From contig DASZFO010000192.1 in the NCBI GenBank assembly GCA_035939775.1, forward strand, positions 1 to 57,038: 57,038 nt of DNA. Direction: 5' to 3'. Positions within the stretch are counted from its first letter, which is position 1. Each line of letters opens with the position of its first letter. Source of the DNA: Pirellulales bacterium. GTDB lineage: Bacteria; Planctomycetota; Planctomycetia; Pirellulales; DATAWG01. The notes beneath the pieces were generated by a model. The model ran no database searches and was not told the origin of the DNA. It was given only the letters and a program-made list of their open reading frames with translations. Both the position numbers and the translations under genes were made by a program. This document shows, in pieces, positions 14,464-38,638 of the stretch.

Positions 14464-14836
14464 ATAGACGCGGTTGTAGTTTCTGGGCAAGCTGGAAGGG
14501 TCAGAATTGTGAACCTTTCTTTTTGATTTTGCTTGCCGCGGTTGCGATGCGGGCTGCCGCGCTTTCCGTGCGTTGCAATTCGGGATAATTCGTCGGCGCG
14601 CCGACCGTTGCGACGCGACCGACTGGCGGAACGGTTGGGAGGTTTTCGGCGCCGCGAGATGCACGTTCGTGTAGAGCGCCAAGGGCGACCGTGGAAGTCT
14701 GGCAGCGGCGGGTGGCCGGCGGACTAACCGATGCCGCCGGTTCCTTCCAATTCGTCAGCGCCCCGTAAGAGAGAGCCGGGTTCGCCGCCGGTCGCTGCGT
14801 ATAAACCGTCTTGTCAAGGGATTCATTCAATAGTCC

Positions 14837-14842
14837 GAGGAG
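14837..14842 (+). promoter_or_regulatory. Ribosome-binding site fixing the start of the giant protein
   Basis: GAGGAG lies 7 nt before the ATG at 14850. This argues against the TTG at 14811, which has no such site. Confidence 0.7.
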
Positions 14843-14849
14843 TCGGTCG

Positions 14850-17800
14850 ATGACCTCGCCCAATAGATTCTCGATGGTCCAGATTGGTAAAGCGTTTATC
14901 AATCGAACTGGTCGTCCAAGTCGAATTCGCTGCCTGTCCGCGCTTATGGGATCCGCAGTGGCAGTGCTTCTGGCCGGCTCATTGCACGCGGCCAACACCG
15001 ATACTTGGACGGGCGGCGCGGGGGACGGAAGTTGGTCGAATGGCAATAACTGGAACCTCCCGGCCACTCCCGCCGTCGGCGACACTTTGGTTTTCACAAA
15101 TGTGACCGGCGCGACCACGAGCCTGACCGACGACGATAACGTCTCTTTTGGCGGTTTGACGTTCAGCACGTCGGCCACGCCCTATGCTTACTCGATTGCC
15201 GCCGGGGGGGCGGTGACGACCCTAACGCTAACTGGCGCGCTCACCGATCAATCGTCCAACGGCAGCGTTCAGACGTTCAACCTGGGAATCACGGGCACCA
15301 CACTGACGTTGACCGGCACGGGTGGCAGCGGCCTGGCGCTCAACAACGGCGGCACGTTCACCGGCGCTTTGACCGACACCAGCAACGGCGCAACTGCCGA
15401 CACGCTTGCGATCGGCGCGGGACAAACACTGAGTTTCGCCGCGGCAAACACCATCGGCGCCGCAGCCGGCACGGTCAACACGACTACCTCGCTCTCGGTC
15501 ACTGGAACGGTATCATCCGTGCTGTCGTTGACGAGTAGTCTTACCGTGGGAGGAAACGCGAACACCGGGACCGGCACATCCAATATCGTGACGGCCAACT
15601 TAAGCGGAATTGGCACGTTCAACTTGACGGCGACGAGCGGCAGCCTTGGCGTTGCCACGGCCGCGCAAACCAGCGCCACACTGACGTTGGCCAATACGAG
15701 CAACACCATCAACGTCGGCTCCGTTAGTGTCGGTAATTTCAACGACACATTGACCGGTACCACTGAACCGTTTGGCGGTACGCTACACTTGGGCGGCGGC
15801 ACGAACGTTTTCAATGTGGGCACAGCGGCGACAACCCCCGGCGCCTTTTTGATTGGTTCCGGGCGCAATGGGACCGTTGATTTTGCCGGCCCAGGTGGAT
15901 CGGTGACGATCGCCGGATTTAACGGCGCTGTTGGCGTCAATGGCGCCAAAATCACTGTCGGAGAGGGTCGCTCGATCACAACCACTCGGCCGAACGTGAC
16001 CGCCAACCTGAGTCTCGCGGGACACACGGCCAACATAGATGCGAGCACGGTGATCGTTGGCCTGAATGACACGACTGCTTTCAATCCCGGCAACAGTACT
16101 GCCAATCTAACTTTCGACACGGGCACGTTTAATATCCAGACGCTTCAACTTGCCAGGGAAACCAACAGTCATGGAACGATGGCGGCTACTTTTACGCTCG
16201 GAACGAACTCCGCCAGCACCGGCGTTCTGAACGTAGCCACCGAGTTCGACATCCTCGACAACACGGTCAACGACGGAAATGCGCAGGCTGGAACGTTCAT
16301 CATCAACGGCGGAACCGCCAACCTCCAGACTTCGATTGTGGTAAAGGCGACGGGCGCCAACACGGCGAGCAAGATCGCATCAACCCTCACGCTGGCTGGC
16401 GGTATTTTGAACATGAACGGCAATGCCATCGGCGCGAGCGGAAACGGCGCTGGCGGCGACAGCGCATTGGTCAAGATCGTGAATATGCCCGGCTCGGGAC
16501 AAACGTTTACCATCAAAAATCTTGGAACCACCACGGCGAGCGGCGGCACGGCTGTTGGCGATGGCATCAACGGCGCCGGCTTGACGATGAACGGCGCCGG
16601 CACTTTGATCCTCGACGGCACGAATACCTACGGCCAAACGACCGTCAGCACGGGCACATTGCGCGTCGGGGCAGGCTCGACCGCCGGCACGTTGGGTACC
16701 AGCGCGGTCACCGACAACAGCATTTTGCAGTTCAATCGCAGCGACTCCGGGTTCACAGTGAGCAACGCGATCAGTGGGTCCGGCGCCGTCCAACAGATCG
16801 GCAGCGGGACGACGACATTGACCGGCGCCAACAATTACGCCGGCGCCACCACGATCACCAATGGCACACTCGTCTTTTCCGGCGATAATGTGTATTCGGG
16901 CGCAGGGGCGATGACGGTCAATGCCGGTACTCTGCGGCTGATCACCACGTCGTCCACCAATAATATCTCGAGCGCCGCGAGCATCACGATCAACAGTGGC
17001 GGCACGTTCGACTTGACCCAAGTTGCCCCGGTCGGCGGATTCGTTCTCGGCAATTCGCAAACCCTGTTTAACAACGGCGGCGTCGCCACCGGCAACGTCA
17101 CCGCCCTCAACGGCGGGACCGTCGCCGGCGGCGGCGGAACCTTCAACGGTCCGAGCGGCAACAACACCGTCACCATCAACGGCGGCGCGTTGGTGCCCGG
17201 AAACTTGACGACCGTCGGAAACATGACGATGAGCAACCTCGCGGTCGCTTCAAGCGGCGCTTGGGGGATCAAGATCAATGGCGCGAGCGCCGATTCGATC
17301 GCCGTTTCCGGCACAGCCTCTTTTGCCAATGATCAATCGCTGTTCATCTCGCAGTTGGCCAAAGCGACCAGCGCTTCGTACACCGTATTGACGGCCGGCA
17401 GTTTGACCGGCTTGACCGCGGGAACGCTCCAAACGGTCGGGCGCACGACTTACAGCATCGATGCGCCCGCGCTGGCCGCGAACACCCTCAAGCTCGACGT
17501 CACCGGCAGCCCTGCCGCGCTGGCCTGGACCGGCACCGGGACGGTCCCCGCGCAATGGGACGACACCCAGGCCACCGCCAATTGGATCCGCACCGATGGA
17601 GGACTCGGGGATACTACTCATTTCTACGACGGGGACAATGTCACTTTCGACGATAGCCACAATACGGGCAATCAATACAACATCAACCTCTCGACCAACG
17701 TCGCGCCCGGTACGATCACGGTGACCAACGGCAGCATCGCCACGCCGAACACGATCTACGTACTCGGCTCGACGAACGGCAGCTCGATCTCCGCGCTCAG

Positions 17801-20800
17801 CCTGTTGATGAGCAGCAGCAACGGCACCGGCGCATTGACGATCAACACCAGCAACAACTCGTTCACCCTGGGGACCATCGTGCAAAGCGGCACGCTCAAT
17901 GCCAACGCCGCCGGCGCGCTGGGCACGCAGGCGGTCACCGTCAGCGGAGGCGTCCTCAATCTCACGGCCGCCAACGCCGTGAACTCCTCCACTCCCACCG
18001 TCACGATCAACGGTGGCGCCCTCAATCTGAACGTTTCCGGCGCCCTGGGAAACAATCCGATCAACTTGACGAGCGGCAACCTCGATTTCGGCGCTTCCGG
18101 CGCGATTGGAAGCGGCATGCTGACCCTGGGCGGCGGCACGATCGACAACACGTCTGGCGCGGCGATCACACTCAACAACAATCCGCAGGTCTGGAACGGC
18201 AGTTTCGTCTTCCAGGGTACGAACGACTTGGATATGGGAACTGGCACGGTAACGCTCAACAGCAACCCGACGGTGACTGTCGCGGCCGGCAATTTGACGG
18301 TCGACGGAGCGATCGGTAACGGTACGGGCAATAGCGTGACGAAATCCGGCGCCGGCACGCTGATCCTCACGAGCAACGCATCCGGTTACAGCGGCGGCAC
18401 CACGATCAACGCCGGCGTGGTGAAGTTCACCAGCTTCGGTGCGCTGGGAACCGGTCCCGTTTCGATCTCCGGCGGCGGCACCCTCGACCTCAGCGGCCTG
18501 CTGACCGCGAACATCGCCAACGGTTTCGGGACCACACAGGTGACGATCGCCGGCACGGGGGTTGCTACACTAGCGTTCCCCGGCGGCGAGGGGGCCATTT
18601 TCAATAACGGACCGTCACAGCAGAACGCCTTTCAGAAGATCACGCTTTCCGCCGATGCGACCATTGGCGGCAACGGGGCTGCCACCGGTAATTCAGCGAC
18701 CGGACGCTACGACCTTCGCGGCGGCACGCCGGTGCTCGATCTGGCGGGCCACACGCTTACCAAGGCTGGCAGCAGCCAGTTCACGTTGGTCAGCACGTCC
18801 GTCACCGCCGGTAATATCGTCGTCGCATCCCCCGGTGCGGTCGGCGCCGTTTTCCGGAATACGCTGGGCGTCGAGAGCGCGTCGAGCATCCCGGCCACCA
18901 TCAATCCCGACAGCACTCCGTCGACCATCACGTTCAACGACGACACGAACCTCGAGCTTTTCCAATTATCCGGCGCGGTTACGCGGCCGATGGTCTTCAA
19001 CGGCGATGTACTGGTCAGCACTGGCACCACGGCCGTATCCTCGACACTCGGCAGCCCAATCACCATCAACGGCGTTCTGAGGGTCGACAGTGCGCTTTCC
19101 GGGGCCAATAATAATGCTCCGATTATTCTGACCGGCAATCTCAGCGGACCTGGCTCGATCATCAAGGCAAACAGTAACACGGGTAACGTGACCGGGGCCG
19201 CCGTACTCACACTGTCCGGCAATAGTAGCTACAGCGGTGGGACGACCATCACGGGTGGCACGATCGTGGCCGGCAGCAACACCGCTCTGGGGACCGGGCC
19301 GCTAAACGTGAGCAGCGGCTCGACGCTTGACCTTCACGGGTTCAGCCTGACCGTTGGCCCCTTGAGCGGCGACACCGGCACGATCACCAGCGCTGTCGCG
19401 GGCGCCGTCACGCTTACGGTCGGCAACGGAGGCGGCGATGGTTCGTTCGGCGGCACCATCCAGAACGGCAGCGGGACCGTCGGTTTCACGAAGGTCGGCG
19501 CGGGCACCGAATTCCTAACCGGTTCGAACATTTACGCCGGCGCGACCCAAATCCAGGCGGGCACGCTCCGTCTTGGCGGCTTCGGTGTCCTTCCCACGGC
19601 GACAAGTGTCTCGCTCGGCAGCGGCACGGGCAGCGGGATCCTCGACCTGGCGGGTAACAATGCGACGGTCGCCAGCCTGACGAGCAATGGAACTGGCGCG
19701 GCCAACATCGTCGGCAATAGCGGAGCGATTGCGTCGACGCTGACTCTTTCCGCCGCGAGCGGCTCCTTCGGCGGCACGATCCAGGACGTTCTCGGCAGTG
19801 GCACGGCCACCACGACTCTCACCATCTCCGGCGGCTCGCTCACGCTCACCGGCGCGAACACCTATACCGGCGGCACCAACATCAACGGCGGCGGCACGCT
19901 AACGGTAAACGGCTCGCTTGCTTCCACTGCCCCGATCGCGCTCAATTCCGGCACGCTCTCGGGCAACGGAAGCGTGGGGAACGTCACCATGCAGGTTGGC
20001 TCATCGATCCGGCCCGGTCTGACGGCGGCAGACGGCGTGCTCGGCAATCTAACCATGCACAACCTGACGGTCAACGGCGGCGATTTGCGCGTCGACCTTG
20101 CCGCCGGCAATCAGAGCGATGAGTTGATCGTCACCGGGGCCGCGAGTTTTCTCGGTAACTCGACAATCACTCCCACCGCCAGCTCTCCGCCGCCTGGCAA
20201 CTACCTGCTGCTTACCGCCGCGGGCGGAGTCGGCGGCACGCCTCCGACCTTGCCGGCCGCAACGCGCACAGTCTACACGCTTCATTTTGGCGACGCCACG
20301 TCGGGACCGGACGATATCACTCTGAATGTCGTCGGCGCCGCCAAGTCGCTGACTTGGACAGGGAACATTCCGCCGGGCAGCCCGCCAGGCGACGGGTCAA
20401 CTTGGGACGTCCAGAACAATCAGAACTGGTCGGACAACGGCGGCACAACGACCGATCAAACTTTCTTCAACCAAGATTCGGTTACATTCCCCAACAACTC
20501 GCACCGCGCGATCACTCTCAATCAGATTGTTGATCCAGGCGCCGTGACGTTCGCCAATGACGCAAACAATCCATATACGCTCAGTGGCTCGGGCGCGATC
20601 GACGGCTTGACCGGTCTGACCGTCTCGGGGGGCGGCACCGTGACCATCACGACCACCAACACTTACAGCGGCACCACCGCCGTCACGAGCGGCAGCACGC
20701 TGCGCATCGCCGATCCGACCGTCAATAGCGGCACTTTGGGGAGCCTCGGCACCGGACCGATCGCCGTGGACGGCACCGTGATTTTCAACCGCAGCGATTC

Positions 20801-23800
20801 CCTGACGGTGCCCGGCGCCATCAGCGGTGCGGGCGTTGTACAGCAAAATGGCACGGGCACGCTCGTGCTTTCGGGCGCGAGCAGCTATACGGGCGGCACC
20901 GTTTTCAACGGCGGCACCGTCCAGGTCGCCGCGGACAACAATCTTGGCGGCGGAGCAGGTCCGTTGAAGTTTAACGGCGGCACGCTCGAGGCGACCGCGA
21001 GCTTCGCCACCGCCCGCGGCACGACAATCAACGCGCCGGGCGGGTCGTTCAACGTCGACTCCGGCGCCACGCTCACCCAAAGCGGTGTCATCACGGGTGG
21101 AGGCATGTTGTTCACGACCGGCCCCGGCACTCTGGTTCTAGCTGCCAGCAACACGATGACCGGCGGCGTGATGATCGACAACGGCATCCTCCAAGTAGGC
21201 ATCGCCGGGGCGCTCAATTCCACGACGCCGAACGCCGTGGCGTTTCCCGCCAATGCACCCAGCGGTGCCGCACTGCGGCTCAACGGCATCAACGTGACGA
21301 TCAGCGGCTTGAACACCGATCCAGTCAACCCTGGTAGCGCGGTCGTCGACAACGGCAGCGCCACGGCGGCCACGTTAACCGTGAAAAGTGCCGTCACTAA
21401 CACGTTTGGCGGGGTCATGCAAAATACGGGATCGGCAAATCTCAATCTGGCCATGACCGGCGGTGGAACGTTGCTGCTCTCCGGCACGAATAGTTTCGGC
21501 GGCTTGACAACGATCAACGGCAGCACGATTCAAACCGCCGTCGCCGGCAACTTGGTCGGTCTGGCAGGGCAGGTCAACTTTATTAACGGTACGCTCCATA
21601 TCACGGGCGATCCCACCAATCCGGGCGCCCCTATTGTCGCCGCGAACACGACGAACAAATTCAGCAACTCCGGCAATGCGGGCGCTACCGGAACCTTTAA
21701 CATCGATGCCGGCGTGAGTTTCCAAGTCGGGGCGACCGTCACCCAAACCACTGCCGTATTGCAAACCGCTGGCACCGGACCAAACGGCTCGGGAACCGCG
21801 GGCGGCTCGTTCATCAAGACCGGACTGGGGACCATGATCATCTATGGCCAAAACAACCAGCAGGACACGAACTTCCAATTGCAGCAGGGCACGATCGACT
21901 TGCGGTCGGCCAGAGGGCTCGGCGGCGAGGACACCAACGCGGTCCGGCTCGATATGTCGGACGGCACGAAGTTGATCCTCGATGCCGATCCCGGCTTCAA
22001 TAATGTGACCGTGCCTCCTCCGGCCGGACTCACCGGCACCGATTTTCTCACCGGCTTGCGGTCAGCCACTGCCGGCGGCACGATGAACATCACGGTGGAT
22101 CAACTGACGGCCGGCGCGGCCAATAGCCAAGCGATCGGCGCCTTGCAGGCGGCGGGCGCCTTCACGATGAATGTCACCTCCGGCCCGAACATGACCAGCG
22201 GTACGGCCGGTCTGTTCCTCGATCAAAACAATAATCAGACGGGGGGCGGCTTTAACGGCGCGGTCGCGCTCAGCGGCAACGGCACCTTCAATGTCGTCAC
22301 CAACACGGCCGCCGGCGCCAGCGGGATGTTGATGACCATCAACGGCCCCGTCACCGGCACAGGCTTCGGGATAACCAAAACCGGCAGCGGCACGCTGCAA
22401 CTCAACAGCGCCAACACGTATAGCGGCGCAACCAACATCACCGGCGGCACGCTACGATTGTCCAGTGCCAGCGTCAACAGCATCCCGAGTTCACCGACGT
22501 TCAGCATCGGCAGCGGAGCAACCTTCGACGTCAGCGGTCTTACCAACGGCACCATCGTCCTCGGCAGCGGTGCTACCGCGCAAACCTTGACGGGCAGCGG
22601 CACGCTGAACGGGTCCGTAACCGTCAACGCCGGCAGCGCATTCGGCGGTGCCAGCGGCGGGACACTTACCATCACCGGCGGCGCCAGCTTGCAGGACCAG
22701 TCGCATTCGGCCTTCACGCTCGGCGCGCCCAACGGTTCCGGAAATGCGCTGACCTCGCTGGTGAACATCGCCGGCGCGCTTGCGGTCGCGGGCACCAATC
22801 TCGTCGATCTGTCCGGCGCCGCTCAGGCTGGCACGTACGAGCTGTACGCCTTTACGAGCGGCGCGCCAACGGCCAGTCAGTTTTTGGTCAGCAGCAGCTC
22901 GGCCGGCGCATTCAACTACACTTTCAGCGTCATTCCGAATCAAGAGGTGGACCTGATCGCGACGCCAAGCGCTTCCGCCTCGTGGAACTTCAACGGCAAC
23001 GGCAACTATAGCGAAAGCGCGAAGTGGAGTCCGACGACCGTTCCCAACGGCACCGGCTTGACCGCCACATTTGGTGATGGAGTGCCTGCCGGGATCGTGG
23101 CCCCGCCTCCCTCGGCGGTGACAGTCACGATCGACGGCGTCTACACGCTCGGCACGTTACAGTTCAATAACTCGGCCAGCCCGACCAGCACGCAGTATAT
23201 TCTGGGGAATGATGCGGTCGGATTCCATAACATCACGCTCAACAACGGCGGCCTAGGTGCCACAGTCAGCGTGGCGGCCGGCGTAAGCGCGCAGCAGGAG
23301 ATTCTGGCCAACCTCCTGCTTGCCGACAACGCGACTTTCAATATCGCCGGCGGCACGTCGCTCCTGGTCAGCGTCGGATCAATCAGCCAGACCGGCGGTA
23401 ACCGAAGCCTCACGCTGACCGGCGGCGGCACGCTCACCATCGACAGCGCCAGCAGCTACGGCGGCGGAACTACCGTCACCAACGGCGAGCTGACGACCAC
23501 GGCGACTGGAACACTCGGCAACGGCCCGCTGGCGATCAATGCGGCCGACACGATTACCTCGTCCGTCAATCTCAACAGCAACCAAAATGTGACGAGCATA
23601 TCGGGTACGACCGCGGGAAGCGGTACGGCGAGTCTCAACGTGGCCGCCGGCACGACACTTACGGTCAACCAAGCGAGCACCACGATTTACTCTGGAAATG
23701 TGAGCCTGGCGCCGAGCGGCGCGGCGCACGGCGGAGGCACGCTGACGAAGTCCGGCGCCGGCATTCTCGAGATCGACGGCGCTCCGTCGCTCGGGACCAA

Positions 23801-24446
23801 TAGCAACCTGAACGTCAGCGGCGGCACGCTCAGATTCAAAGTCACCAGCGGCTCGGTCTTCGTCGGCACGGGTGTGTTGGCGACGGTCACCGGCACGGCC
23901 ACGCTGGAATTGGCCGGCTCCGAGTCGGCCTTGGATCCGCTCATCATCAAGGGCCGAGCCGATATTCTGAACAATAGCACCGCCTCAGCCGGCGTCTTGG
24001 TCACTGGCACCAATCAGCAAGTCGGCGGCATCGACGGCACGGGAACGACGCAAGTCGACGGCGGCAGCGATCTCACGGCCAATCACATCGCGCAAGGCGC
24101 CCTGGTGATCGGCGGCGACGCCACGCACGCGGCCCTCGTGACGATCGACGCTTCGGACAGCAATGGAAATCCGCTGGCTTCTTCTGGCGGAATGGCCTTG
24201 GCCGGCTCCTTGGAGCCGCGCGAGCCATTTGGCTCAGACACGGCGAGTGCCGCGAGTTTTCTGGCCTCGAGCAGCTCGTCGTCGGGTAGAAGTTTGGGCT
24301 CGGCCGGCGCAGCGCTGGGCGGCGCGGCCAGTCTCGGCGGTAGCCTATCGACCGTCCCTGAGCCGGCAACGTTCGTGCTGCTGAGCTTGGGAAGCCTGGT
24401 CTGCCTCATCCCTCGGTTGCGCCGACGACTTGCCGACACTCGATGA
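14850..24446 (+). CDS. Giant autotransporter-repeat (PATR) surface protein with PEP-CTERM anchor
   Basis: 3198 residues. An N-terminal signal peptide ends near GSLHA, and a PEP-CTERM sorting tail (VPEPATFVLLSLGSLV, then RLRRRL) closes the chain, so it is exported and probably processed by an exosortase. At least twelve autotransporter-associated beta-strand repeats (TIGR02601 type, pattern TLxLxGxNxYxGxTxIxxGTLxxG) are readable, as in TLQLNSANTYSGATNITGG, giving a long beta-helix. Four W-G-W-NW modules near residues 50, 890, 1835 and 2710 divide it into similar segments. There is no translocator barrel. The stop overlaps the next start by 4 nt (ATGA). It is likely a surface or matrix protein; the ligand is unknown. 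Confidence 0.9.
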   Translation: MTSPNRFSMVQIGKAFINRTGRPSRIRCLSALMGSAVAVLLAGSLHAANTDTWTGGAGDGSWSNGNNWNLPATPAVGDTLVFTNVTGATTSLTDDDNVSFGGLTFSTSATPYAYSIAAGGAVTTLTLTGALTDQSSNGSVQTFNLGITGTTLTLTGTGGSGLALNNGGTFTGALTDTSNGATADTLAIGAGQTLSFAAANTIGAAAGTVNTTTSLSVTGTVSSVLSLTSSLTVGGNANTGTGTSNIVTANLSGIGTFNLTATSGSLGVATAAQTSATLTLANTSNTINVGSVSVGNFNDTLTGTTEPFGGTLHLGGGTNVFNVGTAATTPGAFLIGSGRNGTVDFAGPGGSVTIAGFNGAVGVNGAKITVGEGRSITTTRPNVTANLSLAGHTANIDASTVIVGLNDTTAFNPGNSTANLTFDTGTFNIQTLQLARETNSHGTMAATFTLGTNSASTGVLNVATEFDILDNTVNDGNAQAGTFIINGGTANLQTSIVVKATGANTASKIASTLTLAGGILNMNGNAIGASGNGAGGDSALVKIVNMPGSGQTFTIKNLGTTTASGGTAVGDGINGAGLTMNGAGTLILDGTNTYGQTTVSTGTLRVGAGSTAGTLGTSAVTDNSILQFNRSDSGFTVSNAISGSGAVQQIGSGTTTLTGANNYAGATTITNGTLVFSGDNVYSGAGAMTVNAGTLRLITTSSTNNISSAASITINSGGTFDLTQVAPVGGFVLGNSQTLFNNGGVATGNVTALNGGTVAGGGGTFNGPSGNNTVTINGGALVPGNLTTVGNMTMSNLAVASSGAWGIKINGASADSIAVSGTASFANDQSLFISQLAKATSASYTVLTAGSLTGLTAGTLQTVGRTTYSIDAPALAANTLKLDVTGSPAALAWTGTGTVPAQWDDTQATANWIRTDGGLGDTTHFYDGDNVTFDDSHNTGNQYNINLSTNVAPGTITVTNGSIATPNTIYVLGSTNGSSISALSLLMSSSNGTGALTINTSNNSFTLGTIVQSGTLNANAAGALGTQAVTVSGGVLNLTAANAVNSSTPTVTINGGALNLNVSGALGNNPINLTSGNLDFGASGAIGSGMLTLGGGTIDNTSGAAITLNNNPQVWNGSFVFQGTNDLDMGTGTVTLNSNPTVTVAAGNLTVDGAIGNGTGNSVTKSGAGTLILTSNASGYSGGTTINAGVVKFTSFGALGTGPVSISGGGTLDLSGLLTANIANGFGTTQVTIAGTGVATLAFPGGEGAIFNNGPSQQNAFQKITLSADATIGGNGAATGNSATGRYDLRGGTPVLDLAGHTLTKAGSSQFTLVSTSVTAGNIVVASPGAVGAVFRNTLGVESASSIPATINPDSTPSTITFNDDTNLELFQLSGAVTRPMVFNGDVLVSTGTTAVSSTLGSPITINGVLRVDSALSGANNNAPIILTGNLSGPGSIIKANSNTGNVTGAAVLTLSGNSSYSGGTTITGGTIVAGSNTALGTGPLNVSSGSTLDLHGFSLTVGPLSGDTGTITSAVAGAVTLTVGNGGGDGSFGGTIQNGSGTVGFTKVGAGTEFLTGSNIYAGATQIQAGTLRLGGFGVLPTATSVSLGSGTGSGILDLAGNNATVASLTSNGTGAANIVGNSGAIASTLTLSAASGSFGGTIQDVLGSGTATTTLTISGGSLTLTGANTYTGGTNINGGGTLTVNGSLASTAPIALNSGTLSGNGSVGNVTMQVGSSIRPGLTAADGVLGNLTMHNLTVNGGDLRVDLAAGNQSDELIVTGAASFLGNSTITPTASSPPPGNYLLLTAAGGVGGTPPTLPAATRTVYTLHFGDATSGPDDITLNVVGAAKSLTWTGNIPPGSPPGDGSTWDVQNNQNWSDNGGTTTDQTFFNQDSVTFPNNSHRAITLNQIVDPGAVTFANDANNPYTLSGSGAIDGLTGLTVSGGGTVTITTTNTYSGTTAVTSGSTLRIADPTVNSGTLGSLGTGPIAVDGTVIFNRSDSLTVPGAISGAGVVQQNGTGTLVLSGASSYTGGTVFNGGTVQVAADNNLGGGAGPLKFNGGTLEATASFATARGTTINAPGGSFNVDSGATLTQSGVITGGGMLFTTGPGTLVLAASNTMTGGVMIDNGILQVGIAGALNSTTPNAVAFPANAPSGAALRLNGINVTISGLNTDPVNPGSAVVDNGSATAATLTVKSAVTNTFGGVMQNTGSANLNLAMTGGGTLLLSGTNSFGGLTTINGSTIQTAVAGNLVGLAGQVNFINGTLHITGDPTNPGAPIVAANTTNKFSNSGNAGATGTFNIDAGVSFQVGATVTQTTAVLQTAGTGPNGSGTAGGSFIKTGLGTMIIYGQNNQQDTNFQLQQGTIDLRSARGLGGEDTNAVRLDMSDGTKLILDADPGFNNVTVPPPAGLTGTDFLTGLRSATAGGTMNITVDQLTAGAANSQAIGALQAAGAFTMNVTSGPNMTSGTAGLFLDQNNNQTGGGFNGAVALSGNGTFNVVTNTAAGASGMLMTINGPVTGTGFGITKTGSGTLQLNSANTYSGATNITGGTLRLSSASVNSIPSSPTFSIGSGATFDVSGLTNGTIVLGSGATAQTLTGSGTLNGSVTVNAGSAFGGASGGTLTITGGASLQDQSHSAFTLGAPNGSGNALTSLVNIAGALAVAGTNLVDLSGAAQAGTYELYAFTSGAPTASQFLVSSSSAGAFNYTFSVIPNQEVDLIATPSASASWNFNGNGNYSESAKWSPTTVPNGTGLTATFGDGVPAGIVAPPPSAVTVTIDGVYTLGTLQFNNSASPTSTQYILGNDAVGFHNITLNNGGLGATVSVAAGVSAQQEILANLLLADNATFNIAGGTSLLVSVGSISQTGGNRSLTLTGGGTLTIDSASSYGGGTTVTNGELTTTATGTLGNGPLAINAADTITSSVNLNSNQNVTSISGTTAGSGTASLNVAAGTTLTVNQASTTIYSGNVSLAPSGAAHGGGTLTKSGAGILEIDGAPSLGTNSNLNVSGGTLRFKVTSGSVFVGTGVLATVTGTATLELAGSESALDPLIIKGRADILNNSTASAGVLVTGTNQQVGGIDGTGTTQVDGGSDLTANHIAQGALVIGGDATHAALVTIDASDSNGNPLASSGGMALAGSLEPREPFGSDTASAASFLASSSSSSGRSLGSAGAALGGAASLGGSLSTVPEPATFVLLSLGSLVCLIPRLRRRLADTR

Positions 24447-27136
24447 TCGATTCTCCCCGGCGATTTACTAAATCGGCTTCGTGCATGACGATCAACCGAA
24501 CATGGACGCTCGCGCTGCCGACGGTCGCTGCTATGGCTGCGGCGATTTCCCTGGCGCGCTCCGCCAGCGCCGCGCCGGATGCTCCGCCGTTCGACATCAA
24601 GGAGCACGAACGGCAGCGAGTCGTCGGCGCGGCAGACCAATACCTTCAGGAGCGCCCGGTCACGATCACCGAATTTCCCGCGCAGCGCAGCGCCGGCGGG
24701 CCGCACGACTACTACTCGGAAGCAGACTACTTTTGGCCTGACCCGAAAAACCTCGACGGTCCTTACGTCAATCGCGACGGGATGTCGAACCCCGACAATT
24801 TCAACGAGCACCGCCATGCGCTGATCCGCATGAGCATTCAGGTTCCGGCGCTGGCGGCGGCGACTCTCATCACGGGCGACGAGAAATACGCCCGCCACGC
24901 CGCAACCCACTTGCGGGCCTGGTTCATCGACGAGGCCACGCGCATGAACCCTAGCTTGCTGTATTCGCAAGCGATTCGCAATAAAGTCAGCGGCCGATCG
25001 ATCGGCATCATCGACACGCTGCACCTCGTGGAAGTGGCCCGCTCGGTCGCCGTGCTCCGCCGGCATTCGCTGCTGGCGAAGCCCGACGAAGCCGCGATCG
25101 TGCAGTGGTTCGCCGATTATCTGAAATGGATGACGACGCATCCTTACGGCATCCAAGAGGGGCTGGCCAAGAACAATCACGCCGTCTGCTATTGGCTGCA
25201 AGTGGCCGAATTCGCGACGTTGACCGGCGATCGCGCAGCACTCGAACAATGCCGCAAGCGGTTCAAGGAGCAACTCCTCGGGCAGATCGCCGCCGACGGC
25301 AGGTTTCCGGGCGAGCTGTCGCGGAGCAAGCCGTATTGCTATTCGCTCTTCAATCTCGACCAGATGGTGATGCTCAGCCAGGTGCTCTCGACGCCGGAGG
25401 ATAATCTCTGGACGTTCGCCCTGGCCGATGGCCGCACGCTTCAGAACGGCCCGGCATACATGTTTCCCTTCGTGAAGGACAAGTCGAAATGGCCGCTCAA
25501 GCCGGATGTGATGTACGACAAATACTGGCCGGTGCGAAGCTGCACCTGGCTATTCGCGGGACTGGCCTATAACGAACCGAAGTACCTCGATCTATGGAAG
25601 CAGCTCGACGCCAATCCGACGAACGACGAAGTGCTCCGCAACTTGCCGATCCGCCAGCCGGTGCTGTGGTTCGACTTTCCGGAGACCCGCATTCGCACGC
25701 CGAAGCCTTCGGCAACTCCGCGGATCAACGGCCCGCGGGTCTATGGCGAGCGTCCCGGCCGGCCGTTTCTCTATACGATTCCGGCCACCGGGCAACCGCC
25801 GCTGGCGTTTTCCGCTGAGGGATTGCCGGAGGGCCTGACGCTCGACGCCAAATCGGGCCGGATCACCGGCTCGGTCGCTCGGGCCGGAGAGTATCGAGTC
25901 ACGCTTGCCGCGGGCAACTCGCTCGGCCGCGATACGGCGCCTCTCTCGATCAAGATCGGCGACCAGATTTGCCTTACGCCACCGATGGGGTGGAACTCTT
26001 GGAACTGCTTCGGCGGCAAAGTGGATCAAGAGAAGGTAGCCGCCCAAGCCGCTGCGATGGCCTCGAGCGGCCTGCTCCAGCATGGCTGGACGTATATCAA
26101 TATCGACGACACCTGGCAGGGCCGCCGCGCCGGTCCCGAGCACGTGCTCGAGCCGGACTCGAAGTTTCGAGACATGAAGCGGCTCTGCGACGACATCCAC
26201 GCGCTCGGACTCAAGGCCGGGATCTATTCGACCCCGTGGGTCACGAGCTACGCGCGCCATGCCGGCGGTTCCGCGGAGAATTCCGAAGGGACCTGGGAAC
26301 CTCCGCCTCCCGGCCCTAAGCAGGTCAACAAGAAGGTCCTTCCCTACGCGATTGGCAAATATCACTTCATGCGGCAAGACGCGCGGCAATGGGCCGAGTG
26401 GGGCTTCGATTATCTCAAATACGATTGGAACCCGATCGAGGCGCCGGACGTGCGGGAAATGGCCGAGGCTCTCCAGGGCAGCGGCCGCGACTTCGTCTAC
26501 AGCCTTTCCAACCACGCTCCGTTTTCCGGCGCCGCCAATTTCGCACGCCTCGCCAATCTCTGGCGAACCACCGGCGATATCAAGGACACTTGGAAGAGCA
26601 TGAGCAGCATCGGCTTCGCGCAGGAGAAGTGGGCGCCCTTCGCGGGGCCGGGGCATTGGAACGATCCGGACATGCTGGTGGTCGGCATTGTCGGCTGGGG
26701 CAAGCCGCGACACACGGGGCTAACCGCGGACGAGCAATACACCCACATCTCGCTCTGGTGCCTGCTCTCCGCCCCGCTGTTGATCGGTTGCGACCTGACG
26801 AAGCTCGACGACTTCACCCTCGGCCTCTTGACCAACGACGAAGTCCTCGCGGTGGACCAAGACGCGCTGGGGCGAGAGGCCACGCGCGTCGGCGCCAGCA
26901 GCGGGCAAGAGGTCTGGGCCAAGCCGCTCGCCGACGGCGCCTGGGCCGTCGGCCTATTCAACCGCGACGACCAGCCGGCGGAGGTGACGCTCAGTCTGGC
27001 CGATCTCAAGCTCAGCGGCCCGCAACCGGTTCGCGACCTTTGGCGCCAAAAGAACCTCCCCGCCGCCGACGGCAAGCTCACGGCCAAAGTCGCCCCGCAC
27101 GGCGCCGAGCTGTTCAAGCTCGGCTCGGCGAGATGA
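24443..27136 (+). CDS. Secreted fusion of an alginate-lyase-type domain and a GH27 alpha-galactosidase
   Basis: 897 residues. A signal peptide is readable from the internal Met15 (TWTLALPTVAAMAAAISLA, cut near SASA), so the true start may be 24485. Residues about 60-400 resemble the Alginate_lyase (alpha/alpha)-barrel of PL5/PL38-type lyases, with KNNHAVCYW (Asn244-His245) and a YSLFNLD tyrosine as likely catalytic groups. Residues about 440-510 look like a putative Ig (He_PIG) linker. From about 512 a GH27 domain begins with PPMGWNSW; KYDWN holds the nucleophile Asp661, WRTTGDI the acid/base Asp712, and GHWNDPDML is conserved. It would cut an acidic polysaccharide and remove alpha-galactose, outside the cytoplasm. 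It overlaps the giant gene by 4 nt, suggesting co-expression. Confidence 0.87.
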   Translation: MIDSPRRFTKSASCMTINRTWTLALPTVAAMAAAISLARSASAAPDAPPFDIKEHERQRVVGAADQYLQERPVTITEFPAQRSAGGPHDYYSEADYFWPDPKNLDGPYVNRDGMSNPDNFNEHRHALIRMSIQVPALAAATLITGDEKYARHAATHLRAWFIDEATRMNPSLLYSQAIRNKVSGRSIGIIDTLHLVEVARSVAVLRRHSLLAKPDEAAIVQWFADYLKWMTTHPYGIQEGLAKNNHAVCYWLQVAEFATLTGDRAALEQCRKRFKEQLLGQIAADGRFPGELSRSKPYCYSLFNLDQMVMLSQVLSTPEDNLWTFALADGRTLQNGPAYMFPFVKDKSKWPLKPDVMYDKYWPVRSCTWLFAGLAYNEPKYLDLWKQLDANPTNDEVLRNLPIRQPVLWFDFPETRIRTPKPSATPRINGPRVYGERPGRPFLYTIPATGQPPLAFSAEGLPEGLTLDAKSGRITGSVARAGEYRVTLAAGNSLGRDTAPLSIKIGDQICLTPPMGWNSWNCFGGKVDQEKVAAQAAAMASSGLLQHGWTYINIDDTWQGRRAGPEHVLEPDSKFRDMKRLCDDIHALGLKAGIYSTPWVTSYARHAGGSAENSEGTWEPPPPGPKQVNKKVLPYAIGKYHFMRQDARQWAEWGFDYLKYDWNPIEAPDVREMAEALQGSGRDFVYSLSNHAPFSGAANFARLANLWRTTGDIKDTWKSMSSIGFAQEKWAPFAGPGHWNDPDMLVVGIVGWGKPRHTGLTADEQYTHISLWCLLSAPLLIGCDLTKLDDFTLGLLTNDEVLAVDQDALGREATRVGASSGQEVWAKPLADGAWAVGLFNRDDQPAEVTLSLADLKLSGPQPVRDLWRQKNLPAADGKLTAKVAPHGAELFKLGSAR

Positions 27137-34974: not shown

Positions 34975-36222
34975 TCACAAGAAATGCATCACGGCGTCGC
35001 ATCCCTGCTCGCCGTTTCTGCTTTTGAAGTAAACCGTGACATCGCCATCGGAACTCACTTCGATCGGACGAGCGCCCCAGAGATACGCCGATTTGGCGGC
35101 CGTTTTTCTGGCGCCCATTTGGTTGCCGACGCCAGGATGAGAACGGATCAAGGCCCCGGTGGCGAGAAGGTTTTCGTCATCGAAGACTACCGCCCCGTCG
35201 ATGCAGGCCAGTTCGATCAATTGCCTCTTTCGCTTGAGCGAACCGGCCTTCTTTCCGATGGCGATATCGTTGATCGAGCCCCCGATCAGGGTCTGACCGC
35301 ATTCGGCCCTTCGCTTCGCGCGGCGGTTCTGATCGTCGTCCGGGCGCATGATGCTTTCCCGGTTGAGAATTCGGTCCTGAATCCGATGCTCGGGGTCGTA
35401 AATCAATAGCGCTCCCTGCCGCCGGAAGCTCAGATCGAACATCACCTCCAAGAGATTGGCGCCGACATGCGGGCTGCCCAGGCAATAGGCGAGACTGTTC
35501 TTGAAGGTCCGAACGTCGTAGATGTTCCATCGTCGCTTTCTTTTCGTGGCCAGGACCCCCGCCTTGCTCATGATGACCAAATCACCACGCGGCGTAAGGT
35601 GGGCCACGAAATCCGCGTCCGTGAGGACGCTGTGGATCGGGTGCAGGAATTCCGGATAGAACTTGCAGGACTTGGCGTTGTTGACCTGCGACCATTCGAC
35701 CGAGCCGTATTGAATCAATTGAAGATCGGGATCGACGGCCAGATACGTGAACGTGAAGGGAGACGATGCGAGCCGATCGAAGAATTTCTGCAAATGAGGT
35801 TGGGTGACGTCTCCCTGCCCCGCGCCGGGACGAATGACCAGCGTCAGAGCGACCGGCAGGTTTTCGTTGGTGCGCCGCGAGACCGTCTCGAGGTACTTGA
35901 TGAGCCGCACCCAATCCGGTTCCTGCGAGTGCATGCGCAGCCACTCGACAACGAAGCCCTCGAGAAGAATATCGGTGAGGCCGGGATACTCGATAAATCG
36001 ATCCAGAGGGAGTTGTCGGGTCCGAGTCGAGATCGCCGCCAGCAATGCCCTGAGATTCGGCGCGAGCTTGGAGTGATTGTGGAATCCGGCCGATGACTCT
36101 CCGATCGGTATGGAATATCTCGCCGGACCGCAATGGGCCTCATACCAATGCGGAACCAGGCGGATGATTTCCCGGCCAATCTCGGTCTCGGTTACCGCTC
36201 GCAGAATATCTGGCGGAGTCAT
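34975..36222 (-). CDS. Diadenylate-cyclase-like (DAC/DisA_N) protein with altered RHR motif
   Basis: 415 residues. The last 170 follow the DAC fold closely: FRRQGALLIYD (267-276) matches the RTGALIVIE strand, LACIDGAVVFDDENLLATGAL (339-359) carries the catalytic DGA (342-344), and MGARKTAAKSAYLWGARPIEV matches the GTRHRAA region but has Arg-Lys-Thr where active enzymes have Arg-His-Arg. The first 230 residues are an unrecognised domain, possibly one of the sensor-like N-terminal domains Pfam attaches to DAC proteins (DACNV and relatives). It may make a cyclic dinucleotide or only sense one. No membrane helix. The ATG at 36222 is preferred; a GTG at 36330 is possible. Confidence 0.72.
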   Translation of the reverse strand: MTPPDILRAVTETEIGREIIRLVPHWYEAHCGPARYSIPIGESSAGFHNHSKLAPNLRALLAAISTRTRQLPLDRFIEYPGLTDILLEGFVVEWLRMHSQEPDWVRLIKYLETVSRRTNENLPVALTLVIRPGAGQGDVTQPHLQKFFDRLASSPFTFTYLAVDPDLQLIQYGSVEWSQVNNAKSCKFYPEFLHPIHSVLTDADFVAHLTPRGDLVIMSKAGVLATKRKRRWNIYDVRTFKNSLAYCLGSPHVGANLLEVMFDLSFRRQGALLIYDPEHRIQDRILNRESIMRPDDDQNRRAKRRAECGQTLIGGSINDIAIGKKAGSLKRKRQLIELACIDGAVVFDDENLLATGALIRSHPGVGNQMGARKTAAKSAYLWGARPIEVSSDGDVTVYFKSRNGEQGCDAVMHFL

Positions 36223-38638
36223 GCGGCGGATGATACCGAAGATACGCCGCCTGCCCAATAGGTCTTGCTTGCCAGCAGGCGATCGCGACACCCGCAGACA
36301 ATCGATGGTTGCGGGAAAGCCCGCCCTCACGCGATTTCCGCCTCCACCAACTCGTTATCGAGTCGGCTCGAACGATAATCGAGAGAGAAACATTCGTGGC
36401 CGACGCACTATTGGACACTTCCGCGAAGCGACTCGCTCCGACGTCTTGTTCCGCAGTCAGAGGATTGCCCGATGCGTCGGAAGGAGCGATCGTCACGACC
36501 GCCGGGGCGCTGGCCGTGCCGCCGATCACCAATGCGCCGAGAACGATGTGATTGGCCGTGAAATTTCCGCCCGAATTGACGATCAGGCTACCGCTGCCGT
36601 CGATGCCGCCGACGACCTGATTGACGCCGGAGGCCAGTTCTCCGGCGCCGCCAGCGCCAATCGTCAAGTTCGTGCCCGTCGGCAAGGCGCCGGCATTCGC
36701 CAAGATCAGCGTGCCGCCGTTGATCACCGTTCCTCCGGCATAGGAATTGGATCCCGATAGCGTTATCGTGCCATTGGTGCTCTTCGTCAGGCCGCCGGGG
36801 CCAGACAGGTTGGCGCTCACTGTGCCGCCGTTGAGTTGAAACGCAGCGGCGCTGACGCTGCCGCCGATGATGCTGCCGCCCGTATCGAGGGTCAGAGTTC
36901 CTCCGGACGAAAACATTCCGCCGGGAATCACGTTGAGCACACCGCTCGCCGTCACACTGACATTGGTCGTCACCGCCAGGCTGGCGCCAGCGCCGACGGC
37001 CACTTGTCCACCGCCGCTGATCGCCAGCGAGTAAGCCGCTTGAGCCGACGTAACTTGCACGATATTGGCCGTGTCGATAATCGCGTTGGCCGTATTATCG
37101 GGATAGGGCAAACTCGCGCCGGACCATTGCGGATCGGTCCAATTACCGTTCGAGATCCCTTTCCAGGTAAGCGTGGCGGAGCCGGGAGCGAAGGTAAATC
37201 GGTCGGCGGACGTAGTGGCCGACGTTCCGTAGCCGAAAATCGGTTTGGTGACGTTGGCGTTGGGGTTGCTGCTGATGTTGTCGGTTTCCTGGATGCCCGA
37301 CTGGACCGTGATATCGACCATCCCCGAGCCGCTTGGCACGATCGCCTTGATTTGCGAATCGCTCACCACGGTTAAAGAACTTGCAGGCATATTGCCGAAC
37401 AGCACCGACAAGCGCCCTGCCGCGCCCGAGAAGTTCTGTCCGGTAATCGTGATTGTGCTGCCGGCCAAACCGGTCGTCGCGCTCAGGCCGGTCACGCGGG
37501 GCGTCAGGTCCACGACCTCGAAGTCGCCTGCGTTTAGCGCCTTCAGTCCGTTCGAGGCGAAGATGTCGTTCAGATTCCAGGTCAACTTGGTGTTGGGGGA
37601 ATCCACATTGTCTATTGTCGCGGAGGCGCCCGTGACGTACATCGCGGTGCCGATATCCGCGACGATCAGACCATACTGCTGCATGGCGCGAGCAATGATT
37701 TGGGATTCCGGAGGCATGTTGCCGATCAGCATGTTGACGGCCGTCGTGTTCGCCAGCCGCAGCCGCGCTCCGAACGGCAGCTTGTCGGACGCTTGCGAGT
37801 CACTGACCATGTGGGAGGCAGGATAGATGTACTGCGGGTTGACCACACTGCTCGGCAGCGTGAGGCGCAGGGCGTGATTGATGACACCTTGCCCTCCCTC
37901 GGAAACCGTCAGCCCCTCGTCGGGCCGAGCCAGACCGGCCAGGATCGACAATCCGGCCGCGTCGGCCGAAGTGGCGCCGAGCGTGCGGAACTCGTCGGTC
38001 TTCATGTTCCAAACAGTTTCCTGCGCCGCGTGCCAGGCGGTATCCGTCTTGGTCAATTCCACATTATGGTTGTTCGGGAACAAGGTGGGGTCATTCGGCC
38101 GCGACACACCGTATAGTTCATAGGCCACGTTGTTATCTTCATCGAAGACGATCAGGTGCGAATCGCCGCGCTGGTTGGTGCCGTAGCCGCCCCCGTTGAG
38201 GTTCGGTCCGTTTTGGTAATCCCCTTCGAGGACCGCGTTCGGCGGGATCGGGACCGGAACGATGTCGCTCTCGCCCGGATAATTGTCGATCTGGACGTTG
38301 ATCGTCGGCGTGCTGTTGCCGTGAATGATATTGAACGGAATCCCATATAGCGGGCTGGTGCCGTTGACCGGATCGTCCGCGCCCCAATCGGGATGAATAT
38401 GGACCGTAGCGCCGATATTCGCGATAACGGCCGACGAGTTGGCCGCCACGGGCGCGGCGCTGATATTCTGGTTCCATGCATTATCCGCGGGAAAGAGTTG
38501 CAGACCCTGGAGCGAAAGCGCCATCCGCTCTTCCAGCACTTCCACCTGGCAGCGGCACCGCCGTGGCCGACGACTTGCGTTGCAAGCGCGCCTCGCGGAA
38601 CGAACCGAGAACAAACTGCGCAGAAACCGGATCCACAT
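36140..38638 (-). CDS. Exported TIG/beta-repeat protein with LEPR-XLL-like start, probable frameshift at the 3' end
   Basis: 832 residues as read. The basic N-terminus leads to CQVEVLEERMALSLQ, a LEPR-XLL-like sorting motif. A 330-residue domain of unknown function follows (from LFPADNAWNQNIS), then an IPT/TIG domain (about 385-455, VTGLSATTGLAGSTITITG) and one W-G-W module with a beta-strand repeat (TITLSGSNSYAGGTVINGG). The module VGGIDGSGSLIVNSGGNF leading to TANHIVLGALVIGG also occurs near the end of the giant protein at 14850. The last 62 residues (SIIVRADSITSWWRRKSRE onwards) are not protein-like and overlap the DAC gene. A 2-nt loss in the (GA)4 tract at 36381-36388 would restore a stop at 36327. 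Confidence 0.72.
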   Translation of the reverse strand: MWIRFLRSLFSVRSARRACNASRRPRRCRCQVEVLEERMALSLQGLQLFPADNAWNQNISAAPVAANSSAVIANIGATVHIHPDWGADDPVNGTSPLYGIPFNIIHGNSTPTINVQIDNYPGESDIVPVPIPPNAVLEGDYQNGPNLNGGGYGTNQRGDSHLIVFDEDNNVAYELYGVSRPNDPTLFPNNHNVELTKTDTAWHAAQETVWNMKTDEFRTLGATSADAAGLSILAGLARPDEGLTVSEGGQGVINHALRLTLPSSVVNPQYIYPASHMVSDSQASDKLPFGARLRLANTTAVNMLIGNMPPESQIIARAMQQYGLIVADIGTAMYVTGASATIDNVDSPNTKLTWNLNDIFASNGLKALNAGDFEVVDLTPRVTGLSATTGLAGSTITITGQNFSGAAGRLSVLFGNMPASSLTVVSDSQIKAIVPSGSGMVDITVQSGIQETDNISSNPNANVTKPIFGYGTSATTSADRFTFAPGSATLTWKGISNGNWTDPQWSGASLPYPDNTANAIIDTANIVQVTSAQAAYSLAISGGGQVAVGAGASLAVTTNVSVTASGVLNVIPGGMFSSGGTLTLDTGGSIIGGSVSAAAFQLNGGTVSANLSGPGGLTKSTNGTITLSGSNSYAGGTVINGGTLILANAGALPTGTNLTIGAGGAGELASGVNQVVGGIDGSGSLIVNSGGNFTANHIVLGALVIGGTASAPAVVTIAPSDASGNPLTAEQDVGASRFAEVSNSASATNVSLSIIVRADSITSWWRRKSREGGLSRNHRLSAGVAIACWQARPIGQAAYLRYHPPHDSARYSASGNRDRDWPGNHPPGSALV

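What the first reader, a model, noticed from the sequence alone, without database searches (positions are those of the whole stretch)
34975..36222. Divergent diadenylate-cyclase-like protein with Arg-Lys-Thr in place of Arg-His-Arg
The C-terminal 170 residues keep the DAC strand order and the catalytic DGA, but the RHR motif that contacts the nucleotide phosphates reads RKT. The N-terminal 230 residues match no domain I can name. In place of a housekeeping c-di-AMP gene this may be a second-messenger enzyme with another product, or a sensor. It stands alone between a HEAT-repeat protein (convergent) and an exported beta-repeat protein.
Basis: partly seen in the sequence, partly recalled or inferred. 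Interest (0 to 1): 0.72.

Follow-up and report, generated by a model that had tools for sequence, protein, structure and literature searches.

The report
Two-lobed divergent diadenylate-cyclase-like protein near defences
This bacterial gene encodes a protein made of two copies of the fold that normally makes the signal molecule cyclic di-AMP, one copy dead and one with an altered active site, and several relatives in other bacteria sit beside anti-virus defence genes, so it may be an overlooked signalling or sensing part of bacterial immunity.

Summary
Window 34975-36222 (-) is a 415-residue protein whose C-terminal part (249-415) has the diadenylate-cyclase (DAC) fold. It keeps DGA, and the RHR motif reads RKT. 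This is a family trait: all 28 relatives compared keep DGA, and in all 27 with an intact motif the Arg stays while the His is lost. The genome also has a separate, near-universal housekeeping DAC (DGA, RHW).

(1) The 'unnamed' N-terminus is probably a second, catalytically dead DAC lobe (about 93-235). Folded alone, its 40 best structural matches are DACs, and its profile aligns in register with the C-lobe (0 of 200 shuffles as good). (2) The family is patchy and crosses phyla. In 6 of 16 lineages it neighbours anti-phage systems: BREX, DISARM, type I RM, type IIG RM, a DNA methylase in Tn7-like cargo, and CBASS. None of 18 loci of a vertically inherited paralogue group does. The window gene itself has no defence neighbour.

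Best reading: a tandem pseudo-DAC/DAC nucleotide enzyme or sensor of a defence-associated family. Product or ligand unknown; canonical c-di-AMP synthesis doubtful. DAC-CBASS linkage is already published.

The parts
34975..36222 (-). DAC-like gene, 415 aa plus stop
   Evidence: open frame with ATG start; 64% identical full-length homologue in a sister genus
35947..36222 (-). residues 1-92: N-terminal helix, beta hairpin and helices; no family or fold assigned
   Evidence: AlphaFold2 models; Pfam finds nothing there at E<=10
35518..35946 (-). residues about 93-235: probable degenerate DAC lobe (pseudo-DAC)
   Evidence: folded alone, ranks 1-40 of the VIA-align list are DisA/CdaA-type chains, Z 8.3-5.9; Foldseek top hit 3c1y, E 0.1, prob 0.87; profile aligns in register with the C-lobe, 0 of 200 shuffles as good
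35743..35751 (-). residues 158-160 (FTY), in the N-lobe at the place of DGA: catalytic Asp absent
   Evidence: profile-profile alignment of N-half and C-half
35860..35871 (-). residues 118-121 (TNEN; mostly TYEN in the family), E120 invariant in the 14-sequence alignment
   Evidence: alignment A5, motif table
34978..35478 (-). residues 249-415: C-terminal DAC-fold lobe
   Evidence: Foldseek E 2.4e-6 to CdaA; VIA-align Z 9.4 to 2fb5 and 8.6 to DisA; PF02457 weak match
35191..35202 (-). residues 341-344, IDGA; D342 invariant
35101..35109 (-). residues 372-374, RKT in place of RHR; only R372 is conserved in the family
35041..35055 (-). residues 390-394, SSDGD in place of the SEE region; S390, D392 and G393 near-invariant
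36230..36257 (-). promoter-like site TGGGCA-16-TATCAT just upstream of the ATG; similar bases stand at the same place in G001
   Evidence: consensus scan, 1 found against 0.3 expected; upstream comparison; no proof of function

Best explanation
It is a single-chain, two-lobed member of the DAC fold: an N-terminal degenerate DAC lobe without the catalytic Asp, followed by a C-terminal DAC lobe. The C-lobe keeps DGA, the first Arg of RHR and an SxDG acidic motif, but has lost the His. I infer that it still binds a nucleotide and most likely makes a nucleotide signal, at a site shaped either by the C-lobes of two chains or by the dead lobe facing the live one, much as paired live/dead domains work in mammalian adenylate cyclases. 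The family it belongs to is mobile and repeatedly stands beside DNA-modification and cyclic-nucleotide anti-phage systems, so its probable role is an infection- or stress-triggered signalling or licensing module. Shown by computation: DAC fold of the C-lobe, motif state, patchy cross-phylum distribution, defence neighbours of relatives. Probable: the N-lobe is a DAC duplicate. Inferred: nucleotide binding, catalysis, and a defence role for the window gene.
For: C-lobe fold. Motifs: 28 of 28 DGA; first Arg kept and no His at the next position in 27 of 27. D342 invariant and D392 near-invariant at 15-20% identity, which suggests the site is under selection. Separate housekeeping DAC in the own genome and in 50 of 52 relatives, against 2 of 57 for this gene. 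Second lobe. Cross-phylum spread: Planctomycetota, Bacteroidota, Paenibacillus and, more distantly, Agrobacterium and Vescimonas plasmids. Defence neighbours: type I RM operon with an HNH gene, and BREX; DISARM and a DNA methylase; type IIG RM with 4-nt overlap, NucC and QatC nearby; CBASS. Control: 0 defence-specific loci of 18; Fisher p 0.006. Literature: DS-2, a CBASS plus a DAC, where mutating two predicted catalytic residues of the DAC ended defence (PMC13092281).
Against: The window gene and its nearest relatives have no defence neighbour. RHR to AAA abolishes ATP binding and/or c-di-AMP synthesis in known DACs (PMC3328451; PMC4568413), so the protein may not be an enzyme. The N-lobe claim rests on a middling Z, one model from 7 sequences, and a profile match of E 0.005. 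Ten of 16 lineages show no defence neighbour, judged by eye or by Pfam. It is not shown that DS-2's DAC belongs to this family.
Confidence: 0.5

Rival explanations
1. Pseudoenzyme sensor: both lobes have lost synthase activity, and the protein binds c-di-AMP or another nucleotide and passes the signal to a partner.
For: RHR, needed for ATP binding and activity in known DACs, is lost throughout the family; the N-lobe has no DGA.
Against: The catalytic Asp of DGA is kept in every member, and the SxDG Asp is near-invariant at 15-20% identity; a pure sensor need not keep the catalytic Asp. Third-position variation is natural in housekeeping DACs (RHW).
Confidence: 0.27
2. A second, divergent c-di-AMP synthase with an ordinary physiological role (osmotic balance, envelope, DNA-damage response), unconnected with defence; the defence neighbours of relatives reflect residence on genomic islands.
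For: The window gene sits among metabolic and exported-protein genes. One planctomycete family has two or three vertically inherited copies in most genomes with no defence neighbours.
Against: The housekeeping DAC is already present and near-universal. Relatives stand in tight, co-directional arrangement with defence genes: 4-nt overlap with type IIG RM, 22 nt after BrxL, between YgjP and HNH in a type I RM operon.
Confidence: 0.18
3. The N-terminal half is not a DAC lobe but an unrelated alpha/beta sensor domain with a similar strand order.
For: Sequence identity to DACs is only about 6-16%; Foldseek E is 0.1; FBPase also reaches Z 5.3. N-half against the housekeeping-DAC profile is not significant (5 of 200 shuffles as good).
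Against: Forty consecutive best matches are DACs. The N-half/C-half profile alignment is in register over 60 columns, matching the DGA, GxR and SxDG positions, and beats all 200 shuffles. The order of helices and strands is nearly the same in both halves.
Confidence: 0.3

Closest known systems
Canonical diadenylate cyclases (DisA, CdaA/DacA, CdaS, CdaM, DacZ; PF02457)
   Same: C-lobe fold, DGA, first Arg of RHR, order of strands
   Different: His and third residue of RHR replaced (RKT; family RxT/RxL/RxA); SxDG in place of SEE; extra dead DAC-like lobe; patchy distribution
DS-2, CBASS plus DAC system of E. coli (DefensePredictor, PMC13092281)
   Same: a DAC-fold protein tied to anti-phage defence; a distant member of this family (Agrobacterium plasmid, L089) stands next to CBASS
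   Different: window gene has no CBASS neighbour; the motif state of the DS-2 DAC and its membership in this family could not be tested; other members stand with BREX, DISARM and RM systems instead
DACNV and the other DACN N-terminal sensor domains (Pfam; Galperin 2023, text not held, known to me from memory)
   Same: an extra N-terminal region in front of a DAC domain
   Different: no match of the window protein or of its relatives scanned to any DACN model; PF21751 DACNV is in the library
Own-genome housekeeping DAC (contig C73, L009)
   Same: DAC domain with DGA
   Different: has GARHW, scores 81 bits, present in 50 of 52 relatives

Membership tests
DAC fold / PF02457 superfamily | DAC fold of the catalytic domain | tested here: met
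   Foldseek E 2.4e-6, VIA-align Z 7-9.4 for residues 249-415
DAC fold / PF02457 superfamily | window protein scores over Pfam's cut-off (27 bits) | tested here: not met
   14.7 bits; homologues L087 36.8 and L018 27.1 do pass
Canonical diadenylate cyclase (c-di-AMP synthase) | DGA motif | tested here: met
   residues 342-344; 28 of 28 family members
Canonical diadenylate cyclase (c-di-AMP synthase) | RHR motif (RH at least) | tested here: not met
   RKT; no family member has His there
Canonical diadenylate cyclase (c-di-AMP synthase) | makes c-di-AMP from ATP | not testable with these tools
   needs a biochemical assay
Housekeeping DAC of this order | near-universal vertical presence | tested here: not met
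   2 of 57 relatives against 50 of 52 for the housekeeping gene
DACNV sensor-domain family | match of the N-terminus to PF21751 | tested here: not met
   no match at E<=10; model present in the library
DACNH, DACNK and DACNG sensor-domain families | match of the N-terminus to their Pfam models | tested here: inconclusive
   no match, but I did not verify that these three models are in the copy
CBASS-linked DAC (DS-2 kind) | CD-NTase/CBASS genes adjacent | tested here: not met
   window neighbours are HEAT, TIG/PATR, aminotransferase and aldehyde dehydrogenase genes; met only by distant relative L089
CBASS-linked DAC (DS-2 kind) | catalytic residues of the DAC needed for defence | not testable with these tools
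   published for DS-2, not for this family

The most novel reading that the evidence does not exclude
An intramolecular pseudo-heterodimeric DAC (dead N-lobe facing an altered C-lobe) that makes a nucleotide signal other than c-di-AMP and serves as a detachable alarm or licensing module, shared by BREX, DISARM, RM and CBASS loci.
Probability: 0.2. Interest if true: 0.87.

Novelty: new variant of a known kind. Interest (0 to 1): 0.62.

Why it matters
DAC enzymes are known as housekeeping c-di-AMP synthases and, very recently, as a part of one CBASS-type defence. A tandem dead/live DAC family with a lost RHR motif, found beside BREX, DISARM and restriction-modification systems, would extend cyclic-nucleotide signalling to modification-based immunity. 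It would also give a simple test of whether DAC folds make products other than c-di-AMP.

Tried and rejected
Single-protein scan of genome contigs found nothing; an alignment of close relatives succeeded. IMG/VR scans with three queries found no relative, and the viral structure library gave no match at E<=0.001, so a viral origin is not supported. The one 'phage' hit, MT837587, is an unverified contig dominated by a large frame that I judge to be bacterial, so it is not counted as a phage gene. A blastn search for an E. coli relative with the Agrobacterium gene found none; it cannot exclude a diverged one such as the DS-2 DAC. Conserved neighbours of the window gene itself: none; the sister genus has RtcB and deoxyhypusine synthase there. 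The N-lobe's weak likeness to fructose-1,6-bisphosphatase (Z 5.3) stands below 40 DAC rows and was set aside. N-half against the housekeeping-DAC profile is not significant (5 of 200 shuffles as good). NCBIfam gave no match for the window protein, PADLOC none for the first eight family members.

Full report
What is there. The gene runs from ATG 36222 to the stop at 34975-34977 on the minus strand and encodes 415 residues. The HEAT-repeat gene ends 6 nt away and is convergent. The upstream gene on the same strand is an exported protein with TIG and PATR repeats. A promoter-like site lies just before the ATG, and similar bases stand at the same place in the nearest genome. This fits a gene transcribed on its own, but is no proof.

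DAC homology. The window protein alone is below Pfam's cut-off (14.7 bits). Its homologues are not: L087 from Paenibacillus tyrfis scores 36.8 bits and L018 27.1, and six of the first eight members match. The profile of eight members finds diadenylate cyclases as its first three solved structures. An AlphaFold2 model from seven sequences (pLDDT 78.6, pTM 0.81) matches CdaA (E 2.4e-6), and 2fb5 and DisA at Z 9.4 and 8.6 over residues 249-415.

Active-site state. In the table all 28 members have DGA, and the 27 with an intact second motif read G-x-R followed by K, A, V, T, S, R or G, never His. The region after it reads S-x-D-G in place of SEE. D342 is invariant and R372, S390, D392 and G393 are near-invariant at 15-20% identity. 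RHR changed to AAA abolishes activity in M. tuberculosis DisA, together with ATP binding (PMC3328451), and in CdaS (PMC4568413). The housekeeping DACs of this order read RHW, so the third residue is free to vary and the loss of the His is the real departure. The own genome holds such a housekeeping DAC, as do 50 of 52 relatives; the present gene occurs in 2 of 57.

The N-terminal half. No sequence family matches it. When residues 1-248 were folded alone (pLDDT 78.4, pTM 0.80), Foldseek's best hit was DisA (E 0.1, prob 0.87). VIA-align's ranks 1-40 were all DAC enzymes, Z 8.3 to 5.9, over residues about 93-234, with fructose-1,6-bisphosphatase next at 5.3. The tool warns that Z near 8 can be a common arrangement. 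As an independent test I aligned the N-half profile with the C-half profile of 39 members: score 22.7, E 0.005, 60 columns, above all 200 column shuffles (max 19.3; a smaller set beat 120 of 120). The alignment is in register: residues 158-160 (FTY) against DGA, 190-192 against GAR, TPRGD against SSDGD. So the protein is probably a tandem of a dead and a live DAC lobe. Known DACs need two lobes face to face (PMC8573169). I infer that the dead lobe may complete or regulate the site of the live one.

Distribution. The family is patchy: Planctomycetota, a Bacteroidota MAG and Paenibacillus, a second genome found in the Bacteroidota search, and distant members on Agrobacterium, Paracoccus (truncated) and Vescimonas plasmids. 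In the tree the window sits in a fully supported clade of 12 with Bacteroidota and Paenibacillus members, which suggests horizontal transfer. One planctomycete family ('f22') carries two or three paralogues in most genomes.

Gene neighbours. G618: HsdM, HsdS, HsdR, YgjP, DAC, HNH on one strand. G186: PglX, Fic, PglZ, BrxL, DAC on one strand. L083: DISARM DrmD, DrmMI and DrmA divergent from an HTH gene followed by the DAC. L087: DNA methylase directly upstream, in cargo next to TniQ-like genes. L102: type IIG restriction-methylase overlapping the DAC start by 4 nt, with NucC and QatC nearby. L089: a complete CBASS operon convergent with it. That is 6 of 16 lineages; the other ten were judged by eye or by Pfam. 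In 18 f22 loci, 69 neighbours gave only two generic PADLOC hits. Fisher p 0.006, or 8e-5 against an assumed 5% background. The six do not form one clade. The window gene and its sisters show no defence neighbour.

Comparison with the literature. DS-2 is a CBASS with a DAC; mutation of two predicted catalytic residues of that DAC ended defence, and 15 of 30 homologues stood with CBASS (PMC13092281). Whether that DAC belongs to this family could not be tested. No paper in the library joins 'diadenylate cyclase' with BREX, and none of the listed DISARM papers mentions diadenylate cyclase. Galperin 2023 ('All DACs in a row') is not held, so an earlier mention of this family cannot be excluded.

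Verdict. Observation confirmed; interpretation partly supported. The protein is filed as a divergent, probably tandem member of the DAC fold, not as a canonical c-di-AMP synthase, because RHR was tested and not met. Its defence role is inferred from relatives.

Noticed in passing
window 36140-38638 (-): The TIG/PATR repeat ORF runs 83 nt into the DAC gene in another frame. The neighbouring frame just upstream ends in ...RLDNELVEAEIA-stop near 36327, a typical planctomycete exported-protein ending (my knowledge), so a frameshift (natural or assembly) is likely and the overlap is probably not real.
   Followed up: partly
L134:8267-9565 (G024, same order): A 432-aa DAC with DGA, intact RHR (GTRHRSA) and VSQDGDV, a few kb from transposase-like genes: shows SxDG can go with RHR; only a weak match to this family's profile.
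   Followed up: partly
L047:8548-9327 (-): HNH nuclease gene 1 nt downstream of the DAC in the type I RM operon; N-terminus like HNH effectors of CBASS/SAVED systems (PDC-M68A); a candidate effector partner.
   Followed up: partly
f22 loci L053-L080: Two or three DAC-like paralogues per genome in most members of one planctomycete family, about 470-500 aa, with a GARTLA motif and no defence neighbours: a possibly housekeeping branch of unknown role.
   Followed up: partly
L088 (MT837587): Unverified 'bacteriophage' record that carries a DAC-like gene beside a large exported-looking frame; looks like a bacterial contig mislabelled as phage.
   Followed up: partly
L102:5000-17300: Dense defence island in a genome drawn from the Bacteroidota search: QatC, type IIG RM, the DAC, and NucC within about 12 kb.
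   Followed up: partly
window 14811-24446 (+): A 3211-aa open frame followed by an alginate-lyase/melibiase-type fusion protein (24443-27136); the giant frame itself was not examined.
   Followed up: no
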